Of a DNA stretch of 64,000 nucleotides, positions 3,837 to 63,429 are shown piece after piece (position 1 is the first letter of the stretch; each line of letters opens with the position of its first letter). Below the pieces are notes generated by a model, which was not told the origin of the DNA, searched no databases, and was given only the letters and a program-made list of their open reading frames with translations. The translations under genes were made by a program, and so were the position numbers. The DNA is from Ailanthus altissimus (taxonomy: Eukaryota; Streptophyta; Magnoliopsida; Sapindales; Simaroubaceae): positions 19,734,001 to 19,798,000 of the forward strand of contig OX327712.1 in NCBI GenBank assembly GCA_946807835.1. Reading direction: 5' to 3'.

Positions 3837-4367
3837 CTATAGTATTCGACAATTCCTTTTTATGTGGTCTGATTTTTCACAATGATAGTAAGAAATTATT
3901 TGGCCTCTGGATTTGGATCTCTCTCTAGACTTGTCATTATGACTTCTTTCTCCTCGACTTTTACTTCTCCTTATGTTTTCAATAATAAGAGCTAGTGATT
4001 CTCCAACACATGCCTTATTTTGTATTTCAAATGAAATCAAGGTTGCAGAGACAACTTCAAACTCGATGGTATTTTTTCTATAGGTGAAAGTTGTGATGAG
4101 ATGATCATACGAAGCGAAAAGTGTTGCAATCAAAAGTATAGCTTTCTCTTCATCTGTAAACTTTACATTGAACTTTGATAATTGTGAGATCATGCCATTG
4201 AAGTTTCTCAAATGATGCAACATATCAGTATTCTCATACATGTGCATCCGGTACAACTCCTTCCATAAGTAAAACTTGTTAGACAGATTCTTTGACATGT
4301 ACAGCGCCTTCAACGTCTCCCAAGTTTCTTTGGCTATCTTACACTCTTTAGACTCAATATTTTGCAA
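3837..4367 (-). pseudogene. copia gag remnant
   Basis: This open frame has the plant copia gag (UBN2-type) pattern, including ETWETLKALYM and LLIATLFASYDHL, then an Arg/Ser/Lys-rich stretch and a terminal zinc-knuckle-like segment YYHCEKSDHIKRNC. The usual C-x2-C start of the knuckle is spoiled because the first Cys is Tyr. The in-frame start is uncertain and the frame is broken upstream near 4380. It is part of the defective copia element around it and is not expected to be functional. Confidence 0.75.
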
Positions 4368-35696: not shown

Positions 35697-35768
35697 GGTC
35701 AAAATACCGCTTGTTAAAAGATTGCAGAAAGAGTTTATAGAAGTGAATTGAAATTCTTAAGAGTAAAA

Positions 35769-36668
35769 ATGAGAGATTTTCCATCTTGTTTTGGGGAAAA
35801 TGGGGTACAAGTAGCTGATTCTTCATCATCAAATACAGTTAAAAATGCACAGAATTTGGTTACTTCTGTTTATCAATCTCGTATTCGAGGCCGGTCTTGC
35901 TTGATTACTGTAACATGGAGCAAGAATTTGATGGGTCAAGGTCTAAGTGTGGGGATTGACGACTCTGCAAACCAATGTCTTTGTAAGGTTGATATAAAAC
36001 CCTGGTTGTTCTCCAAAAGAAAAGGTTCGAAGAGTTCAGAAGCATATTCTTGTTTAATTGACATATATTGGGACCTTTCTTCGGCAAAATTTGGATCCGG
36101 TCCTGAACCACTGGAGGGATTTTATGTTGGTGTTGTTGTTGATAGGCAAATGATTTTGCTTCTTGGGGATATGAGGAAAGAAGCTTTCAAGAAGACTAAT
36201 GCCAACCCTGTTCCCTCTAGTGCTGTTTTCGTAGCTAAAAGAGAGCATCTCTTTGGCAAGAAGGTGTTTAATACCAAGGCTCAGTTTTGTGATAATGGAC
36301 AAATTCATGCTCTTGCAATTGAATGCGACACGCATGGTGTCAATGACCCATGCCTCATGGTTCGAGTAGATGGAAAAACTGTGATGCAGGTGAAGAGGCT
36401 CCGATGGAAGTTCAGGGGAAACCATACTATTTTGGTTGATGGGCTGCCAGTGGAAGTTTTCTGGGATGTTCACAACTGGCTGTTTGGTACATCAGTTGGG
36501 AATGCTGTTTTCATGTTCAAGACATGCCTTTCAGCCGAGAAGTTATGGGCTAGTGGACCCCTTCCGGATCCAAACACATTGCCATGGTCTTTCTCTCAGA
36601 GATTCCTAGATTCCAAGTCACAAAGTCTTGGTTTTTCACTGATTTTGTATTCTTGGAAGAATGAATAG
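35769..36668 (+). CDS. DUF868 family protein, 299 aa
   Basis: A single uninterrupted coding exon matches the plant-specific DUF868 family (PF05910), whose function is unknown. Recognisable blocks are SLYQ-like VTSVYQSRIRGRSCLITVTW near the start, CKVDIKPWLFSKRKGSKS, IDIYWDLSSAKFGSGPEPLE, GFYVGVVVDRQMILLLGDM, DPCLMVRVDGKTVMQVKRLR-WKFRGNHTI, VEVFWDVHNWLF and the C-terminal FSLILYSWKNE. The start chosen is MRDFPSCFGE. A possible ATG seven codons upstream adds an unconserved peptide. Length fits the family. There is no signal peptide or membrane segment, and coding composition is clean. A 5'UTR intron is likely. Confidence 0.9.
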   Translation: MRDFPSCFGENGVQVADSSSSNTVKNAQNLVTSVYQSRIRGRSCLITVTWSKNLMGQGLSVGIDDSANQCLCKVDIKPWLFSKRKGSKSSEAYSCLIDIYWDLSSAKFGSGPEPLEGFYVGVVVDRQMILLLGDMRKEAFKKTNANPVPSSAVFVAKREHLFGKKVFNTKAQFCDNGQIHALAIECDTHGVNDPCLMVRVDGKTVMQVKRLRWKFRGNHTILVDGLPVEVFWDVHNWLFGTSVGNAVFMFKTCLSAEKLWASGPLPDPNTLPWSFSQRFLDSKSQSLGFSLILYSWKNE

Positions 36669-42259: not shown

Positions 42260-42443
42260 AAAGAATCCACCCACAGAAATTGAATTGCAAAATAAAAAGA
42301 TCAAGAGAAGAATATAAAATAGAATCAAATACATAGAACACAAAAATTTATGTGGTTTGGTAATTGTCTACGTTCACGGTGAATTAAAATTCTAACTTCA
42401 ATATTGATTAGTGATTACAAAGAATTGTTTTAGGTATTATAAG
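42260..42443. repeat. Fragment of an older retroelement, split by the gypsy insertion
   Basis: TTTATGTGGTTTGGTAATTG followed by TCTACGTTCACGG is a motif seen in many plant LTR elements. The sequence stops at TAAG (42440-42443), where the gypsy element starts, and resumes after 46033. GC-rich words GGCGCCGCGGCGC (46143) and GGCATGTGTGGGATGCGGC (about 49405) may belong to the same host element. Confidence 0.35.
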
Positions 42444-42974
42444 TGTCACGACCCGATTTCTCGAAACCGTGCGGCCTTAGACACTTGCTAGTGCTAAGCA
42501 GCCTACAAGACCCCAATTAACCAAAGAAAGAGATGAAGAAGAAGCACACCAAGTGTTTGAGAGAATGCTCTCGTATTTTATTACTAAAGAGAGATTACAA
42601 AGCTATACACTTACAAGCTAAGAGTATTTCTACAATTTGGAGGATTGGTTCTCAAATGAGAACTCCACCTATTTATAGCTAAAGCTATATACAATGGACG
42701 GTTAGGATTAACTCTAATCCAATGGTCCAAATCTAAAGTGGGGAATATGCTAAGGAATATTCCAAAGATGCCAACTACCAAAAGTATATCCAAAGGAATA
42801 TGCATTTTCTAGAAAACTCCCCCACCTACCACACACATGTGGCATCAACCCAAATCCATTGGGCCTTCTAGAAGCTCTAGCCCATTTAACCCAAAATGGA
42901 CTAAGCCCTCCCTTGGTGGTTCTGTCGCGCGCCAAATGTTCGAGTAATTGCTTGAGAATATTTGGGGCGTGACA
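42444..42974 (-). repeat. 3' LTR of the gypsy element
   Basis: 531 bp, equal in length to the 5' LTR and nearly identical. The gag-pol-like ORF runs about 130 nt into it before its stop. Confidence 0.93.
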
Positions 42975-45475
42975 TTCTCCCCCACCAAATTCACGCGACG
43001 CCCTCGTCGCGTCTTCGCTGGAACTTGCACACCCCGTTCTGCAAACTCTGGCTGTGTGCTCTCGTGTCCCAAGCGTGTTCTCCCATCCGGCAACCCTTTC
43101 CACTCGACAAAGTACTCAAGACTCGTCCTAAGTTGCTCCCCTTTGTCATGGCGTGTGGAAATCCCCAAAGGTTCCCGGTTGTGTGGCTCAAATTCTGCAT
43201 CTCCCGTACCTCCACGGTACTGCTTCCAACAGCTTGCGGAATGCACCTGATGTCGCCACTGCCGCTGTCTCGAAGGTAACTCCACCTTATGCGAGACGTT
43301 GCCAACTCTCTTGGCAATCAACCTTGGCCCCTCGTCCCTACGATCAAGGCCCTTGTGAAGTGGGCGTGCTGACTTGCATTGTGGTGGAAGTATCGTCTCC
43401 ATCACTAAGTCCCCCGCACTGTGCTTGACACGCCGCTGCTTGTCTTCGACCCACTCCTTGTGCTGAAACTGCACATCATGTGACACCTTGGACTTTTGGA
43501 TGACACCCGCATCCAACAACTCCTCGAGCTGCCCCTGCAACTCTCCCATCTCCGATGGAGGCGTCAACCCCATAGTTGGAAGCATAATCTCAAGCTCCAA
43601 CTTGCCCTCAATTACATCTCTTGAAGGCGGTTCTTCCGGTATGGCAGTAGGCTTGACCCCATTGTGCTCCCCGAGCACCTCTGCAGCAACCTTCGGTAAT
43701 TCATCCTTGCCCCCATTTGCCGCATTATCCACCCCCGTTGTTGAGGCTGAATGTAACCCTCCTTTGCGCCCAGCATCTACCCTTAGTTGCATGGCGGAAA
43801 GGACCTTGGCGTTTGGCTTGGATCGCCCACCCTTGGGCATGTCTACCGTCGGTATCATTCGAGGCCCTCCCTCCAAAATACACCTATAGTTGTGTTGAGG
43901 AAGTAACACCACATTGTACTGCCGTAAGAACTCCATACCTAGCACCACATCAAAATCATCGAGAGGTGCTACCGAGAAGTTTACCTCACCGTGCCATTTG
44001 CCAATGTGAATTTCAGCTCCACGAACCGCCCCATCTAGCGGCTTGGCTCTTGCATTCACGGACTTGAGGTATCCCTCTCCTTTCCCTACATAAAGGCCCA
44101 AGCGTTCCGCTTCCGCACGCTTAATGAAGTTGTGCGTAGCCCCCGTATCAACTAACACTTGAGTCTTGATGCAATTGACATAGGCTTCAATGTACATGAG
44201 CGCCGTCCCCGTTGGCGCATCTGCACGCCGCTTGGCTTTGAGGGAATTGAACAGCTGCATGCAACCCATACGGCTCTGTTCGCCCTCATATTTTGCCTCG
44301 TACATTGCATTGAAAGCCTTCTTCTTCGGACAGTCCTTCACCCAATGATCCCCATCGCAGAGAAAACAGTTAGACTTCGGACCATTACCTCTATGGCCGT
44401 TGCGTTTCTGCTCTTTCCACTTGGGCGGTTTGCCTTTCTCCTCCTTGCTCTCCGGAGGCTGAAACTCCTTGGCTCCCCCACCCTTACTGTGATTGGGTTT
44501 AAAATTCTTGGACTTTCCCGAATCCCCCTTGCGGTAATCCATGAGCGTCTCCGCCATTGTAAGGGCGTCAGATATATTCTGCACTCCACGCCGCTTCAAC
44601 TCATTGGCTGCCCAGGATTGTAACCCATCCAGGAAATTGAACAACAAGTCCTCCTCGGCCATGTTGCGGATTTGCAGCATCAGCAAAGAGTACTCCTCTA
44701 CGTACTCCCCAATGGACTTTGTTTGTTTCAACTCCTTCAACCGCTTGCGAGCGTCATGCGCCACATTCTCCGGATAGAATTGGCGTTTTAACTCCCGTTG
44801 CAATTCATCCCATGTGTCTATGGTGCAGGAACCCTTGCGAATCTCCTCGCTTTTCCTACGCCACCACAGAATTGCATGATCGGAAAGGTATAAAGTTGCG
44901 GTACTTACCTTGTGTTCGTCCCGCACGCCCATAGCGCCGAAATACCTCTCCATTTGCCAAAAGAAGTTGTCAAGCTCCTTGGCATCCCGTCTGCCGCTAA
45001 ACTCCTTCGGTTTAGGGGCCTCAACCCTTGGTGCAGCCACCGCAGTTTGAGTAGCTACGCCGTTAGCGACCGCTCGCTTGCACAACACCACATCCTCCTT
45101 GACATCTTCAAACCCCTTTCGTAGCTCTTCTACTTGGGCTTGAACCTTGTCCATGGTGTTGTAGACCTTTTCCTGAAAAGCCTTGATCCAGTCCCGTTGC
45201 TTGTCAGCATGCTCGTCAATGGAGCTTTCGATGAGGGAGCGCAACTCGTCCCCTTGAGTATCGAGGCCTACCTCGACATTCTGGACTTGCTCCTCCAACT
45301 CCCCAAGGCGGTCCGTCGCCTTGCTCACAGCACCACCGAGCTTCATAACCATGTCCCCTAGATCATGGTTCGGATCAACGAACTTTTCTGGCGAAATACT
45401 CCCATGTCTCCTAGCTTTGGGGTCTCTACCCTTCCCTTGAGTAATCCCCGATGTTCCAGCAACTTCCTTCACCAT
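42845..45475 (-). CDS. Gag-protease-chromodomain-like fusion ORF, 876 aa
   Basis: One uninterrupted frame. The ATG at 45475 is chosen because upstream codons fall in the primer site and LTR. In order: a basic N-terminus; a coiled coil (about residues 45-135, LGELEEQVQNVEVG, MDKVQAQVEELRKGF); the retrotransposon gag domain (about 165-315, FFWQMERYFGAMG, LYLSDHAILWWRRK, YVEEYSLLMLQI); a Lys/Pro-rich linker; zinc knuckle CFLCDGDHWVKDC near 385; aspartic protease with VLVDTGATHNFI near 450 and VVLGMEFLRQYNVVLLP; then PPSEMGELQGQLEELLDAG, the usual lead-in to reverse transcriptase. The polymerase is deleted and the frame continues with post-integrase sequence (QFQHKEWVEDKQRR) and a weak chromodomain-like segment (LEYFVEWKGLPDGR). 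GC content is far above the flanks. The intact frame suggests selection or youth. Confidence 0.85.
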   Translation of the reverse strand: MVKEVAGTSGITQGKGRDPKARRHGSISPEKFVDPNHDLGDMVMKLGGAVSKATDRLGELEEQVQNVEVGLDTQGDELRSLIESSIDEHADKQRDWIKAFQEKVYNTMDKVQAQVEELRKGFEDVKEDVVLCKRAVANGVATQTAVAAPRVEAPKPKEFSGRRDAKELDNFFWQMERYFGAMGVRDEHKVSTATLYLSDHAILWWRRKSEEIRKGSCTIDTWDELQRELKRQFYPENVAHDARKRLKELKQTKSIGEYVEEYSLLMLQIRNMAEEDLLFNFLDGLQSWAANELKRRGVQNISDALTMAETLMDYRKGDSGKSKNFKPNHSKGGGAKEFQPPESKEEKGKPPKWKEQKRNGHRGNGPKSNCFLCDGDHWVKDCPKKKAFNAMYEAKYEGEQSRMGCMQLFNSLKAKRRADAPTGTALMYIEAYVNCIKTQVLVDTGATHNFIKRAEAERLGLYVGKGEGYLKSVNARAKPLDGAVRGAEIHIGKWHGEVNFSVAPLDDFDVVLGMEFLRQYNVVLLPQHNYRCILEGGPRMIPTVDMPKGGRSKPNAKVLSAMQLRVDAGRKGGLHSASTTGVDNAANGGKDELPKVAAEVLGEHNGVKPTAIPEEPPSRDVIEGKLELEIMLPTMGLTPPSEMGELQGQLEELLDAGVIQKSKVSHDVQFQHKEWVEDKQRRVKHSAGDLVMETILPPQCKSARPLHKGLDRRDEGPRLIAKRVGNVSHKVELPSRQRQWRHQVHSASCWKQYRGGTGDAEFEPHNREPLGISTRHDKGEQLRTSLEYFVEWKGLPDGRTRLGHESTQPEFAERGVQVPAKTRRGRRVNLVGENVTPQIFSSNYSNIWRATEPPREGLVHFGLNGLELLEGPMDLG

Positions 45476-45502
45476 CTTCTTTGAACCCGCTCTGATACCA
45501 CT

Positions 45503-46033
45503 TGTCACGACCCGATTTCTCGAAACCGTGCGGCCTTAGACACTTGCTAGTGCTAAGCAGCCTACAAGACCCCAATTAACCAAAGAAAGAGATGAAGAAG
45601 AAGCACACCAAGTGTTTGAGAGAATGCTCTCGTATTTTATTACTAAAGAGAGATTACAAAGCTATACACTTACAAGCTAAGAGTATTTCTACAATTTGGA
45701 GGATTGGTTCTCAAATGAGAACTCCACCTATTTATAGCTAAAGCTATATACAATGGACGGTTAGGATTAACTCTAATCCAATGGTCCAAATCTAAAGTGG
45801 GGAATATGCTAAGGAATATTCCAAAGATGCCAACTACCAAAAGTATATCCAAAGGAATATGCCTTTTCTAGAAAACTCTCCCACCTACCACACACATGTG
45901 GCATCAACCCAAATCCATTGGGCCTTCTAGAAGCTCTAGCCCATTTAACCCAAAATGGACTAAGCCCTCCCTTGGTGGTTCTGTCGCGCGCCAAATGTTC
46001 GAGTAATTGCTTGAGAATATTTGGGGCGTGACA
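45503..46033 (-). repeat. 5' LTR of the gypsy element
   Basis: 531 bp bounded by TG...CA on the minus strand, next to the initiator-Met primer site and the TAAG target duplication. Confidence 0.93.
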
Positions 46034-46160
46034 TAAGGAATACACAGCAGCAAAAACGAACCAAAGGGTTGTAACACATCGTGACATAACATTGAAAAGA
46101 AAATAGGGTAATATATATATATATATATATATATAAAACTTGGCGCCGCGGCGCTTGAAA
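46034..46160. repeat. Older retroelement fragment with (TA)n
   Basis: Continuation of the sequence interrupted at 42443, with a (TA)n run at about 46111-46135 and GGCGCCGCGGCGC at 46143. Confidence 0.4.
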
Positions 46161-60556: not shown

Positions 60557-61321
60557 TCATAACACAAGAGGAGAGTGAGCCAAAAAATGGAGACCGTGAA
60601 AAAGTGTACCTTTGAGATAACGTGTGGGATGTAAAAATGCATCGGTAGGAGAGCAAATATGAAGAACTGCTGCATAATGAGAGGTACGAGGAGCGGCCAT
60701 AAACTGACTCACAATATAAACAGCATGAGCAATGTTTGAGCGAGTAACTGTAAGATAGACCAAACTATCAACCAATTGACGATAAAGGGTAGCATCACTG
60801 AGAAGAGTACCATCAAAGGATCGGAGTTTGGCATTAGGCTTTAGAGGAGTGGAGGCAGTCTTACTGTCTGTCAACCCAGCTTTAGCAAGTAAATCGAATG
60901 CATATTTAGTCTGAGAAAGATAATACCCTGTAGAGTCGGATAGTACTTCAAGGCCAAGGAAATAATTAGGGTTGTCAAGATCTTTCATTTCAAAGTGTTG
61001 CTGAAGAAAGTTCTTGAGAGTGAAAATACCAAGAAGATAATCACCTGTGATAATCATATCATCAATATAGATAAGTAGGAGAACACAACCTTGTACCGTC
61101 TTGCGCACAAAAAGAGCTGAGTCATAAGGACTAGACTGAAAACCATGCTGAAGAATAGTCCCACTAAACTTTGCAAACCATGCACGATGAGCTTGTTTAA
61201 AACCATACAGAGCACGATAAAATTTACAGACTTTGCCTGAAGGATGTGGATAACCGGGAGGAGGCTTCATATACACTTCTTCAGTGAGATAACCATTGAG
61301 GAAAGCATTTTTGACATCCAT
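60557..61321 (-). pseudogene. copia reverse transcriptase, C-terminal part
   Basis: A 254-codon frame carrying MDVKNAFLNGYLTEEVYM, FYRALYGFKQAHRAWF, LLLIYIDDMIITG and DLDNPNYFLGLEV, all standard copia reverse transcriptase blocks. Near the end, HYAAVLHI is followed by about 11 extra residues (CSPTDAFLHPT) before RYLKGTLFHGLHF, which in related elements follow directly. It then stops before RNase H. A frameshift divides it from 61367-61594. Confidence 0.85.
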
Positions 61322-63429
61322 TTGAAATAATGTCCAACCACGAACTGCAGCAACAGCTAATAAACTTCAAACAGAAGTAAGTCTAGCAATTGGGGCAAAA
61401 GTTTCTTCATAATCTATGCCATATTCTTGGGTAAAGCCTTTGGCAACAAGGCGAACTTTATAAGGCTCAATAGATCCATCAGATTTGGTCTTGATCTTGT
61501 ACACCCATTTGCATCTAATAACAATTTTATTAGAATGAAAAGTAACAAAATCCCAAGTATATGAGTTCTCAAGGGCCTGCAATTCTTCTGTCATTGCTTG
61601 CTGTCAAACAGGATTAGAACTAGCATCGAAATATGATTGAGGCTCATATAAAGAAAGGGTAGTAGAGAAACAGTGATAATCATGAAGTTTAACGGGAAGT
61701 TCTCTTACCTGAGATGAACGACGAAGAAAGGGTATAGAGGAAGCCTCAGGGATGTTGAGAGCAGATCCTTCAGACGAGGTAGGAGGCTCAAAAGCAGACG
61801 TCGTTTCAGTAGATTCACCTGTATGAAACTCAGAAGAAATATCTGTAGGTAAAGTATCGGGAAAAAGATCAACAGAATTATCTGTAAAAAATTGTGACAT
61901 AGGAGGAGACACATATTTAAAATTAGATACAGAGGAAAATATCATATGCTCGAGAAAGACTATATGACGAGAAACACGAAGACGGTTAGATATAGGATCC
62001 CAACACCTATAACCTTTATATTCTATCTCGTATCCCAAGAAGCAACATAATCGAGTACGTGGCTCGAGTTTAGTATGCTTATGTTTTTGAAGTAGAACAA
62101 AACAAACACAACCAAATACTTTGAGGAGTTTGTAATTAGGTGGAGTTCCATAAAGATGCTCATAAGGTAACTTGTTCTCTATAACAGGAGAATGAATACG
62201 ATTAATGGTAAAGACAGTAGTTAAAGCAGCTTCTCCCCAAAAACGTTCAGGACAAGAGGAAGAGATAAGAAGAGCACGAGTAGTATCTAAAATGTGTTTG
62301 TGTTTACGTTCAGCTCTCCCATTTTGCTGAGATGTACTAGGACAAGACCTTTGACATATAGTACCGTGTTCCTATAAAAGATTTAAAAAAATCAGAATCT
62401 CTATACTCTATAGCATTATCAGTGCGAAAAACCTTAATAGGACATGAGAACTGAGTTTTAACCATCTAAGCAAAATCTCGATAAATTTTAGTAAATTCAG
62501 ATCGTTGTTTCATAAGGAACAACCAAGTATACCAAGAATAGTCATCAATGAATATCACAAAATATTTGGATCTTTCCATGTAGGATTTGGAGAAAGACCC
62601 CATATATCAGAATGTACAATATCAAATGGAGCATGAAAGACAGTAGTACCATTATCAAAAGGTAAGGCTAGTTGTTTAGTTAAAGAACATATAAGGTAAT
62701 CATCTTTATTATCAAAAATAATACATAAATGACCACTGGATACTAGAGATCGAATGCGATTGGTTGACGCATGACCCAAACGAGAATGCCAAAGATGTAA
62801 CGAAGGTACCGAAGAGGTAGATGCTGCAGACGAAGGATATTGAAAGGATAAATCTAAAGAGATAAGTTCATACAGATGTCCAACCTTACGGCCTGTACCA
62901 AGCGTCCGACCGGTCTTTGGATCCTGCACACAACAACCAGAAGCATTAAACAAGACATTAAGACCAAGTTTGCATAATTGACCAACAGACAAAAGATTTA
63001 AGATAAGGTTAGGAATAAAAAAGGTGTCAGATATAGAAATATTAGGGTAAGACACGTGACCAACATGGTTAACTTTCATGAGAGAACCATTAGCAGTTTG
63101 AATAGATAGTAAATAGGAATTAAAAGTTTTAGAGGAGAAAATTGTAGGATCAGAAGTCATGTGATTACAACATGAAGAGTTAAAATACTAAGAAGAATTA
63201 CCTGAAATATTGGAAGAAGCAGAAATTAAGGGTTTATCAGAATTAAAGAAGAGTAGACGGAGTAAAGATTCAAGGTTATTAAGGGAACGATTCACACTAT
63301 CCTGTACAGTAGTAACAGTAGCTCCTGTAAAAGTCGCACCTTGAGATGTTCCAGATATATGGCATGACTGAAGTAGAGTAGAACCGGCAGAAGTACTACA
63401 CTTATCCATAAATTCCAAAAAGAAAACTC

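What the first reader, a model, noticed from the sequence alone, without database searches (positions are those of the whole stretch)
42444..46033. Young polymerase-less gypsy element with an intact gag-protease-chromodomain-like ORF
The element has full LTRs, primer site, polypurine tract and target duplication, and one open frame that joins gag and protease to a post-integrase tail, skipping reverse transcriptase, RNase H and integrase core. Gag-only or gag-protease non-autonomous LTR elements are known in plants, but here a chromodomain-like tail is retained in the same frame. Two visible differences in 531 bp between LTRs indicate recent movement, so a helper element should exist in the genome.
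Basis: partly seen in the sequence, partly recalled or inferred. Interest (0 to 1): 0.8.

Follow-up and report, generated by a model that had tools for sequence, protein, structure and literature searches.

The report
Gag-protease retrotransposon mobilised by helper
A short plant jumping gene that still encodes its shell protein and protease but probably relies on complete relatives in the same genome for copying and insertion; the chromodomain at its end is a broken leftover, so it is a well-documented new example of a known kind.

Summary
In detail: 531-bp LTRs with 2 differences, PBS, PPT, a 4-bp target duplication and one 876-codon frame lacking most of RT, RNase H and the integrase core. 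It is not a one-off deletion: in the same 939-Mb genome 52 of 52 scored ORF matches (window included) span residues 1-873 or 1-876, 39 without a stop; 11 of 18 fetched copies with both LTRs keep the intact frame.

Likely helpers exist: full-length chromoviruses. 30 of 30 examined share LTR homology, 27 of 30 the exact PPT, and their insertion-site motif predicts this family's sites. One of the 30, L050, carries 101 nt identical to this family's U5 end in both LTRs, as strand transfer between the two RNAs would leave.

The chromodomain reading fails. Against helpers the tail has a 36-nt deletion, Leu for the conserved Trp and a frame slip into the LTR. Across 17 copies gag-protease is constrained (omega 0.36); the chromodomain end is not (25 N, 6 S).

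So: a semi-autonomous GAG-protease element (TR-GAG kind; like wheat RLG_Sabrina_SA). New member of a known kind.

The parts
42440..42443 (.). Target site duplication, TAAG (left copy)
   Evidence: 17 of 19 family members examined have an exact 4-bp TSD
42444..42974 (-). 3' LTR (element sense)
   Evidence: 2 of 531 positions differ from the other LTR
42975..42986 (-). Polypurine tract GGTGGGGGAGAA
   Evidence: identical in 27 of 30 helper loci
42845..45475 (-). Single ORF, 876 codons plus stop, ATG to a stop inside the 3' LTR
   Evidence: intact in 11 of 18 fetched copies with both LTRs; no stop in 39 of 52 scored genome matches, window included
44618..44899 (-). Gag capsid domain (Pfam Retrotrans_gag)
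43856..44230 (-). Aspartic protease region, with DTGAT motif
   Evidence: gag-asp_proteas 2.2e-12
43463..43855 (-). Linker and start of RT, ending close to the deletion junction (junction about 43455-43475)
   Evidence: DNA alignment to helpers L029 and L042; variant-count omega 1.11, pairwise pN/pS 0.54
43136..43462 (-). Relic of the integrase C-terminal (SH3-like) domain
   Evidence: PF24626 E 0.0014, below cutoff; omega 0.64, P 0.06; pairwise pN/pS 0.46
43040..43135 (-). Chromodomain fragment: 36-nt deletion just upstream, conserved Trp replaced by Leu
42848..43039 (-). Out-of-frame continuation: helper stop missed, frame reads through the PPT into the LTR
   Evidence: In 11 of 12 helpers examined the frame stops 19 nt before the LTR; the continuation is shared by the 17 copies compared
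45489..45500 (-). Primer binding site TGGTATCAGAGC (tRNA-iMet type, by recall)
   Evidence: exact in 5 of 6 helper pieces, one base changed in the sixth
45503..46033 (-). 5' LTR (element sense)
46034..46037 (.). Target site duplication, TAAG (right copy)

Best explanation
A recently inserted member of a multicopy, semi-autonomous Ty3/gypsy chromovirus family. It encodes its own Gag and protease, which remain under purifying selection. Reverse transcriptase, RNase H and integrase come in trans from full-length chromoviruses in the same genome that share LTR ends, PBS, PPT and target-site choice. The likely cycle: element RNA is packaged in particles built from its own and helper Gag, primed at the PBS, copied by helper RT (sometimes switching between element and helper RNA) and inserted by helper integrase at a weakly palindromic site with a 4-bp duplication. 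The integrase-C/chromodomain tail is a decayed leftover of the deletion that stays open without evident function. Shown: family, selection on gag-protease, full-length relatives, shared signals, shared site motif, one chimeric LTR pair. Inferred: packaging, trans-complementation, and Gag contribution to helper particles.
For: Same interior in many copies: 18 of 20 fetched places have both LTRs and the interior (13 of the 20 had been picked because two LTR hits lay side by side), 16 of 18 with a gap-free alignment of the 2,528-bp interior; 52 of 52 scored ORF matches, window included, span 1-873 or 1-876, 39 without a stop. LTR pairs differ by 0-9 positions, 4 of 18 by none. Selection over 17 copies: gag+PR 99 N/119 S, omega 0.36, P 1e-13; RT bit 1.11; IN-C 0.64; chromodomain and slipped end about 1.9. 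Helpers: 66 scored of 25,357 candidates; LTR homology in 30 of 30 loci; PPT identical in 27 of 30; 11 of 12 examined have an intact chromodomain and stop before the PPT; 3 of 6 examined have identical LTRs, 4 of 6 an exact 4-bp TSD. The helpers' 3'-flank motif scores this family's 19 insertion sites far above background (0 of 20,000 random sets reach the mean). L050 is helper-type except for the last 101 nt of both LTRs, identical to both window LTRs; the other 29 helpers match 71-89 of 104-105 aligned columns there.
Against: No expression, particle or transposition data. No very close helper was found: gag-PR DNA is 74-78% alike in the 16 helpers whose rows were shown; LTRs are 66-70% alike over most of their length in 16 loci and 71-82% over pieces in 14. 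Only the 66 best matches to a foreign RT-integrase query were scored, so the true partner may be unseen. Pairwise pN/pS in linker and IN-C is 0.54 and 0.46 and IN-C variants lean to constraint (P 0.06), so the tail may not be wholly idle; 17 codons at the chromodomain start show low omega against helpers (0.10-0.14). L050 is one case among 30; it has a stop in gag, no matching TSD and 8 LTR differences, and the genome-wide count of such LTRs did not complete.
Confidence: 0.9

Rival explanations
1. The tail is functional: a Gag-protease-chromodomain fusion that steers particles or the pre-integration complex to chromatin.
For: The frame is open through the tail in 11 of 18 fetched copies and the window; the core EYFVEWKGLP is recognisable and 17 codons there keep low omega against helpers (0.10-0.14). 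26 predicted Vitis proteins keep gag plus an intact chromodomain.
Against: 36-nt deletion, Trp to Leu and out-of-frame end, the last two seen in each of 17 copies; Pfam Chromo E 0.06 against 4e-12 for a helper; 25 N/6 S, no constraint among copies; dN to helpers about five times that between helpers in IN-C and linker.
Confidence: 0.04
2. A single deleted copy of an autonomous element, or an assembly artefact.
For: None beyond the structure seen in one window.
Against: Dozens of copies at different places with the same interior, 17 of 19 examined with their own 4-bp TSD.
Confidence: 0.01
3. A purely parasitic family: it moves in trans, and its open gag-protease frame only reflects recent descent from an intact source.
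For: Copies are young (LTR differences 0-9 of about 531).
Against: omega 0.36 with P 1e-13 for gag+PR while the chromodomain end of the same copies evolves freely; dN to helpers 0.07-0.10 in capsid against 0.43-0.46 in the linker.
Confidence: 0.05

Closest known systems
RLG_Sabrina_SA and RLG_WHAM of wheat (GAG-Pro elements called semi-autonomous; PMC9744471, passages seen)
   Same: Gypsy LTR elements with a GAG-protease ORF, no RT or integrase, multicopy, thought to be mobilised by an autonomous partner
   Different: Other lineage and species; here a relic IN-C/chromodomain tail stays in frame and runs into the LTR; this element is 3.6 kb, Sabrina_SA 8.1-8.3 kb
TR-GAG elements (Chaparro et al. 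2015, not read; known through passages of PMC6022998, PMC10025401, PMC8704663)
   Same: LTR element with only GAG, or GAG plus aspartic protease, by the Inpactor rule; a TR-GAG was seen to transpose in Arabidopsis ddm1
   Different: That mobile case is an ATCOPIA63 (Copia) element with GAG only
RLG_Quinta with helper RLG_Cereba (PMC11302176, passages seen)
   Same: Non-autonomous Gag element paired to an autonomous chromovirus by shared LTR ends and PBS
Gag-chromodomain proteins of Vitis (546/557 aa) and Carya P0005, found
   Same: Polymerase-less gag followed by chromodomain; several end in a VGEN- or VGES-like tail, as if a PPT were read in frame
   Different: Their chromodomain looks intact; they are predicted proteins, so gene-model splicing over a pol region is not excluded

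Membership tests
TR-GAG | Two LTRs, PBS, PPT, TSD | tested here: met
TR-GAG | GAG only, or GAG plus aspartic protease, as recognisable domains | tested here: met
   rule from PMC6022998
Semi-autonomous GAG-Pro element (Sabrina_SA/WHAM kind) | Intact GAG-Pro frame kept across copies | tested here: met
Semi-autonomous GAG-Pro element (Sabrina_SA/WHAM kind) | Autonomous relative with same PBS, PPT and LTR ends | tested here: met
Semi-autonomous GAG-Pro element (Sabrina_SA/WHAM kind) | Mobilised in trans by that relative | not testable with these tools
   Only indirect: shared site motif, chimeric LTRs of L050
Chromovirus with working chromodomain | Complete chromodomain in frame | tested here: not met
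   11 of 12 helpers examined have it
Galadriel clade | RT phylogeny | not tested
   Element has no RT domain; no helper RT tree was built; the label is recalled
Galadriel clade | 4-bp TSD commonest (PMC6911290) | tested here: inconclusive
   17 of 19 have 4 bp, but Galadriel element Beon1 of beet is listed with 5 bp (PMC3605345) and other clades can have 4 bp

The most novel reading that the evidence does not exclude
The integrase-C relic fused to Gag-protease is not idle: in a frame that now runs into the LTR it has become a new C-terminal Gag extension (for example binding helper integrase or element RNA) while the chromodomain part decays; and element and helper exchange LTR ends by first-strand transfer in mixed particles, making this a recombining two-partner population.
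Probability: 0.1. Interest if true: 0.6.

Novelty: new member of a known kind. Interest (0 to 1): 0.35.

Why it matters
It gives a young element/helper pair in one genome: same LTR ends, PBS, PPT and target motif, purifying selection strongest on Gag-protease, and an LTR chimera that looks like a fossil of strand transfer between the two RNAs in one particle. Such traces could make the usual guess about which autonomous family mobilises which non-autonomous one testable from sequence. It also warns that an open frame with a chromodomain-like tail need not mean a working chromodomain.

Tried and rejected
A first frame-aware protein alignment suggested the frame slip near codon 797; DNA alignment to helpers of the same genome places it near codon 813 and shows the Trp change as a substitution, so the earlier position was dropped. 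A shared RT junction with Carya P0005 and Malus P0022 was considered; their right-hand joins differ and DNA alignment moves ours to about 43455-43475, so independent deletions are likelier; those proteins may also be spliced gene models. Vitis gag-chromodomain proteins (26 aligned): amino-acid differences are similar in gag, linker and chromodomain (0.06-0.10), which decides nothing without DNA. An earlier count said 12 of 18 copies intact; the right count is 11 of 18, or 12 of 17 in the codon set that includes the window. Rfam: nothing at gathering score in the window. The genome-wide count of chimeric LTRs did not complete; no separate search for a closer helper was made.

Full report
Observation. 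The element lies at 42444-46033 and is read on the minus strand. Its LTRs are 531 bp each with 2 differences, the strict target duplication is TAAG, and PBS and PPT are in place. At 1.3e-8 (the rate quoted in PMC5818461) or 7e-9 (recalled) per site and year, 2 differences give about 0.14 or 0.27 million years. One frame of 876 codons starts at ATG 45475 and ends at 42845, inside the 3' LTR. Pfam sees gag and protease; no RT, RNase H or integrase core.

Family. The window is part of a 939-Mb genome. An LTR search scored 40 of 2,111 candidates, 97-100% identical, many in pairs about 3,059 bp apart. Of 20 fetched places (13 picked as such pairs), 18 held both LTRs and the interior and 2 (L024, L025) showed one LTR only; 16 of the 18 interiors align to the window's without a gap, while L015 and L019 have gaps. 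LTR pairs differ by 0-9 positions and 4 of 18 are identical; the full 876-codon frame is open in 11 of 18, broken in 6, and L019 was not assessed because the script did not find its PBS. An ORF search scored 52 of 9,080 candidates, the window among them: 50 span 1-876 and 2 span 1-873; 39 have no stop, 13 have one or two. These are the best-scoring copies, so the intact share is likely an upper estimate. Including the window, 17 of 19 have an exact 4-bp duplication.

What the tail is. A search with a foreign RT-integrase piece scored 66 of 25,357 candidates in the same genome, many within open frames of about 1,562-1,567 codons. In 11 of 12 loci examined the frame continues through integrase C-terminus and an intact chromodomain and stops 19 nt before the LTR; the twelfth (L036) has an earlier stop. 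Aligned as DNA to L029 and L042, the window's frame leaves the RT shortly after its start, re-enters in the integrase C-terminus, has lost 36 nt at the start of the chromodomain, has Leu where helpers have the conserved Trp, and slips frame near codon 813, so the helper stop is missed and the frame runs through the PPT into the LTR. The 17 copies compared share this end. Pfam Chromo scores 4.3e-12 for a helper tail and 0.06, over 20 of 53 profile positions, for the window tail.

Selection. Variants among 17 copies (L015 and L019 left out for indels), against a neutral expectation from the observed base-change spectrum: gag+PR 99 N, 119 S, 4 stops (9.3 expected), omega 0.36, P 1e-13; linker and RT bit 48 N, 19 S, omega 1.11; IN-C 35 N, 24 S, 1 stop, omega 0.64, P 0.06; chromodomain and slipped end 25 N, 6 S, 1 stop, omega about 1.9; IN-C to slipped end together 0.89. 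gag+PR differs from the chromodomain end (Fisher P 2e-4) and the linker (2e-4), not clearly from IN-C (0.08). A cruder pairwise count gives pN/pS 0.15-0.20 in the four gag and protease regions, 0.54 linker, 0.46 IN-C and 1.17 chromodomain; by that measure linker and IN-C are relaxed rather than free. Silent diversity is also higher in gag-PR (0.075-0.12) than in the tail (0.03-0.06), unexplained.

Against 9 helpers, dN is 0.07-0.10 in the capsid, 0.15-0.19 in protease, 0.43-0.46 in the linker and 0.25-0.28 in IN-C; two helper pairs compared with each other give 0.04-0.05, 0.09, 0.08-0.09 and 0.05 (IN-C plus chromodomain). So linker and IN-C changed about five times faster in this lineage, capsid and protease about twice. 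Against my reading, 17 codons at the chromodomain start keep omega 0.10-0.14 to helpers; the stretch is short and may record constraint from before the decay. Silent sites are near saturation, so these ratios are rough.

Helper link. All 30 helper loci examined have LTR similarity to this element. The 25 nt before the LTR are identical in 21 of 30 and the 12-nt PPT in 27 of 30. The PBS is exact in 5 of 6 helper pieces and has one changed base in the sixth, that of L050. Of six helpers with both LTRs read, three have identical LTRs and four an exact 4-bp duplication. The 3' flanks of 30 helpers share a motif near CTAGGCA. Scored with it, the 19 sites of this family average 3.8 against a background of -5.2 (the window only), and 0 of 20,000 random sets reaches that; positions beyond the duplication alone give P 2e-7. 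The reverse-complemented 5' flanks also score high (P 1e-11, partly the same bases as the duplication), so the site is weakly palindromic.

The sharpest trace is L050. Its LTRs are helper-type for most of their length, but the last 101 nt of both are identical to both window LTRs, while the other 29 helpers match 71-89 of 104-105 aligned columns there; five other copies of this family match 99-100 of 100. The switch lies at a pyrimidine-rich stretch common to both types. A strong-stop DNA made on one RNA and moved to the 3' end of the other would give this pattern in both LTRs. Against it: one case in 30; L050 has a stop in gag, 8 LTR differences and no matching TSD; and a helper subfamily that simply owns this U5 is not excluded, as the genome-wide count did not complete.

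Known kind. Wheat RLG_Sabrina_SA and RLG_WHAM are polymerase-less GAG-protease elements called semi-autonomous (PMC9744471, passages). Inpactor puts GAG, or GAG plus protease, elements under TR-GAG (PMC6022998, passages), and one TR-GAG moved in Arabidopsis ddm1 (PMC8704663, passages). RLG_Quinta is matched to its helper Cereba by shared PBS and LTR ends (PMC11302176, passages). A survey found a slight preference of plant LTR elements for palindromic targets, not significant for its 49 Galadriel elements, and 4-bp duplications commonest in Galadriel (PMC6911290, passages); a beet Galadriel element is listed with 5 bp (PMC3605345, passages). The Galadriel label is thus possible but untested. 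Searches for non-autonomous, nonautonomous or semi-autonomous with gag and chromodomain or Galadriel (25 of 50, 18 of 18, 20 of 25 and 2 of 2 papers listed) showed none whose title or abstract start is about a gag-protease-chromodomain element; most listed papers were not opened.

Verdict. New member of a known kind, with unusually full sequence evidence for the partnership.

Noticed in passing
L050 (G000:C11:18300600-18305621) with L063: Full-length chromovirus whose two LTRs carry 101 nt identical to this family's U5 end on a helper-type LTR: likely product of first-strand transfer between element and helper RNA.
   Followed up: partly
Flanks of L009-L028 and L029-L058: Shared weakly palindromic insertion motif near GTGCCTAGGCAC with 4-bp duplications for element and helpers.
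   Followed up: yes
26 proteins among P0072-P0112: Vitis species hold predicted 546/557-aa proteins with gag and an intact chromodomain but no protease, RT or integrase domain: a possible true gag-chromodomain family; DNA not checked.
   Followed up: partly
G000:C10:1665573-1671258: Two copies of this family sit head to tail at 3,058-bp spacing, as if sharing a middle LTR.
   Followed up: no
L014 (G000:C11:18799684-18804336): A copy with about 460 bp extra between the LTRs, including a second copy of the 91 bp next to an LTR.
   Followed up: no
ORF codons 1-540 against 541-832, 17 copies: Silent diversity is about twice as high in gag-protease as in the tail, and half of informative site pairs fail the four-gamete test: perhaps recombination among copies.
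   Followed up: partly
G000:C9:617538-619559: The search reports an open frame of 40,594 aa around this RT-integrase match; cause unknown, possibly masked or artefactual sequence.
   Followed up: no
35748-36668 +: Host gene of the DUF868 family (Pfam 2.9e-109).
   Followed up: no
60557-61321 -, 62555-63160 - and 3837-4367 -: Fragments of copia-type elements (RVT_2; gag_pre-integrs; Retrotran_gag_2).
   Followed up: no
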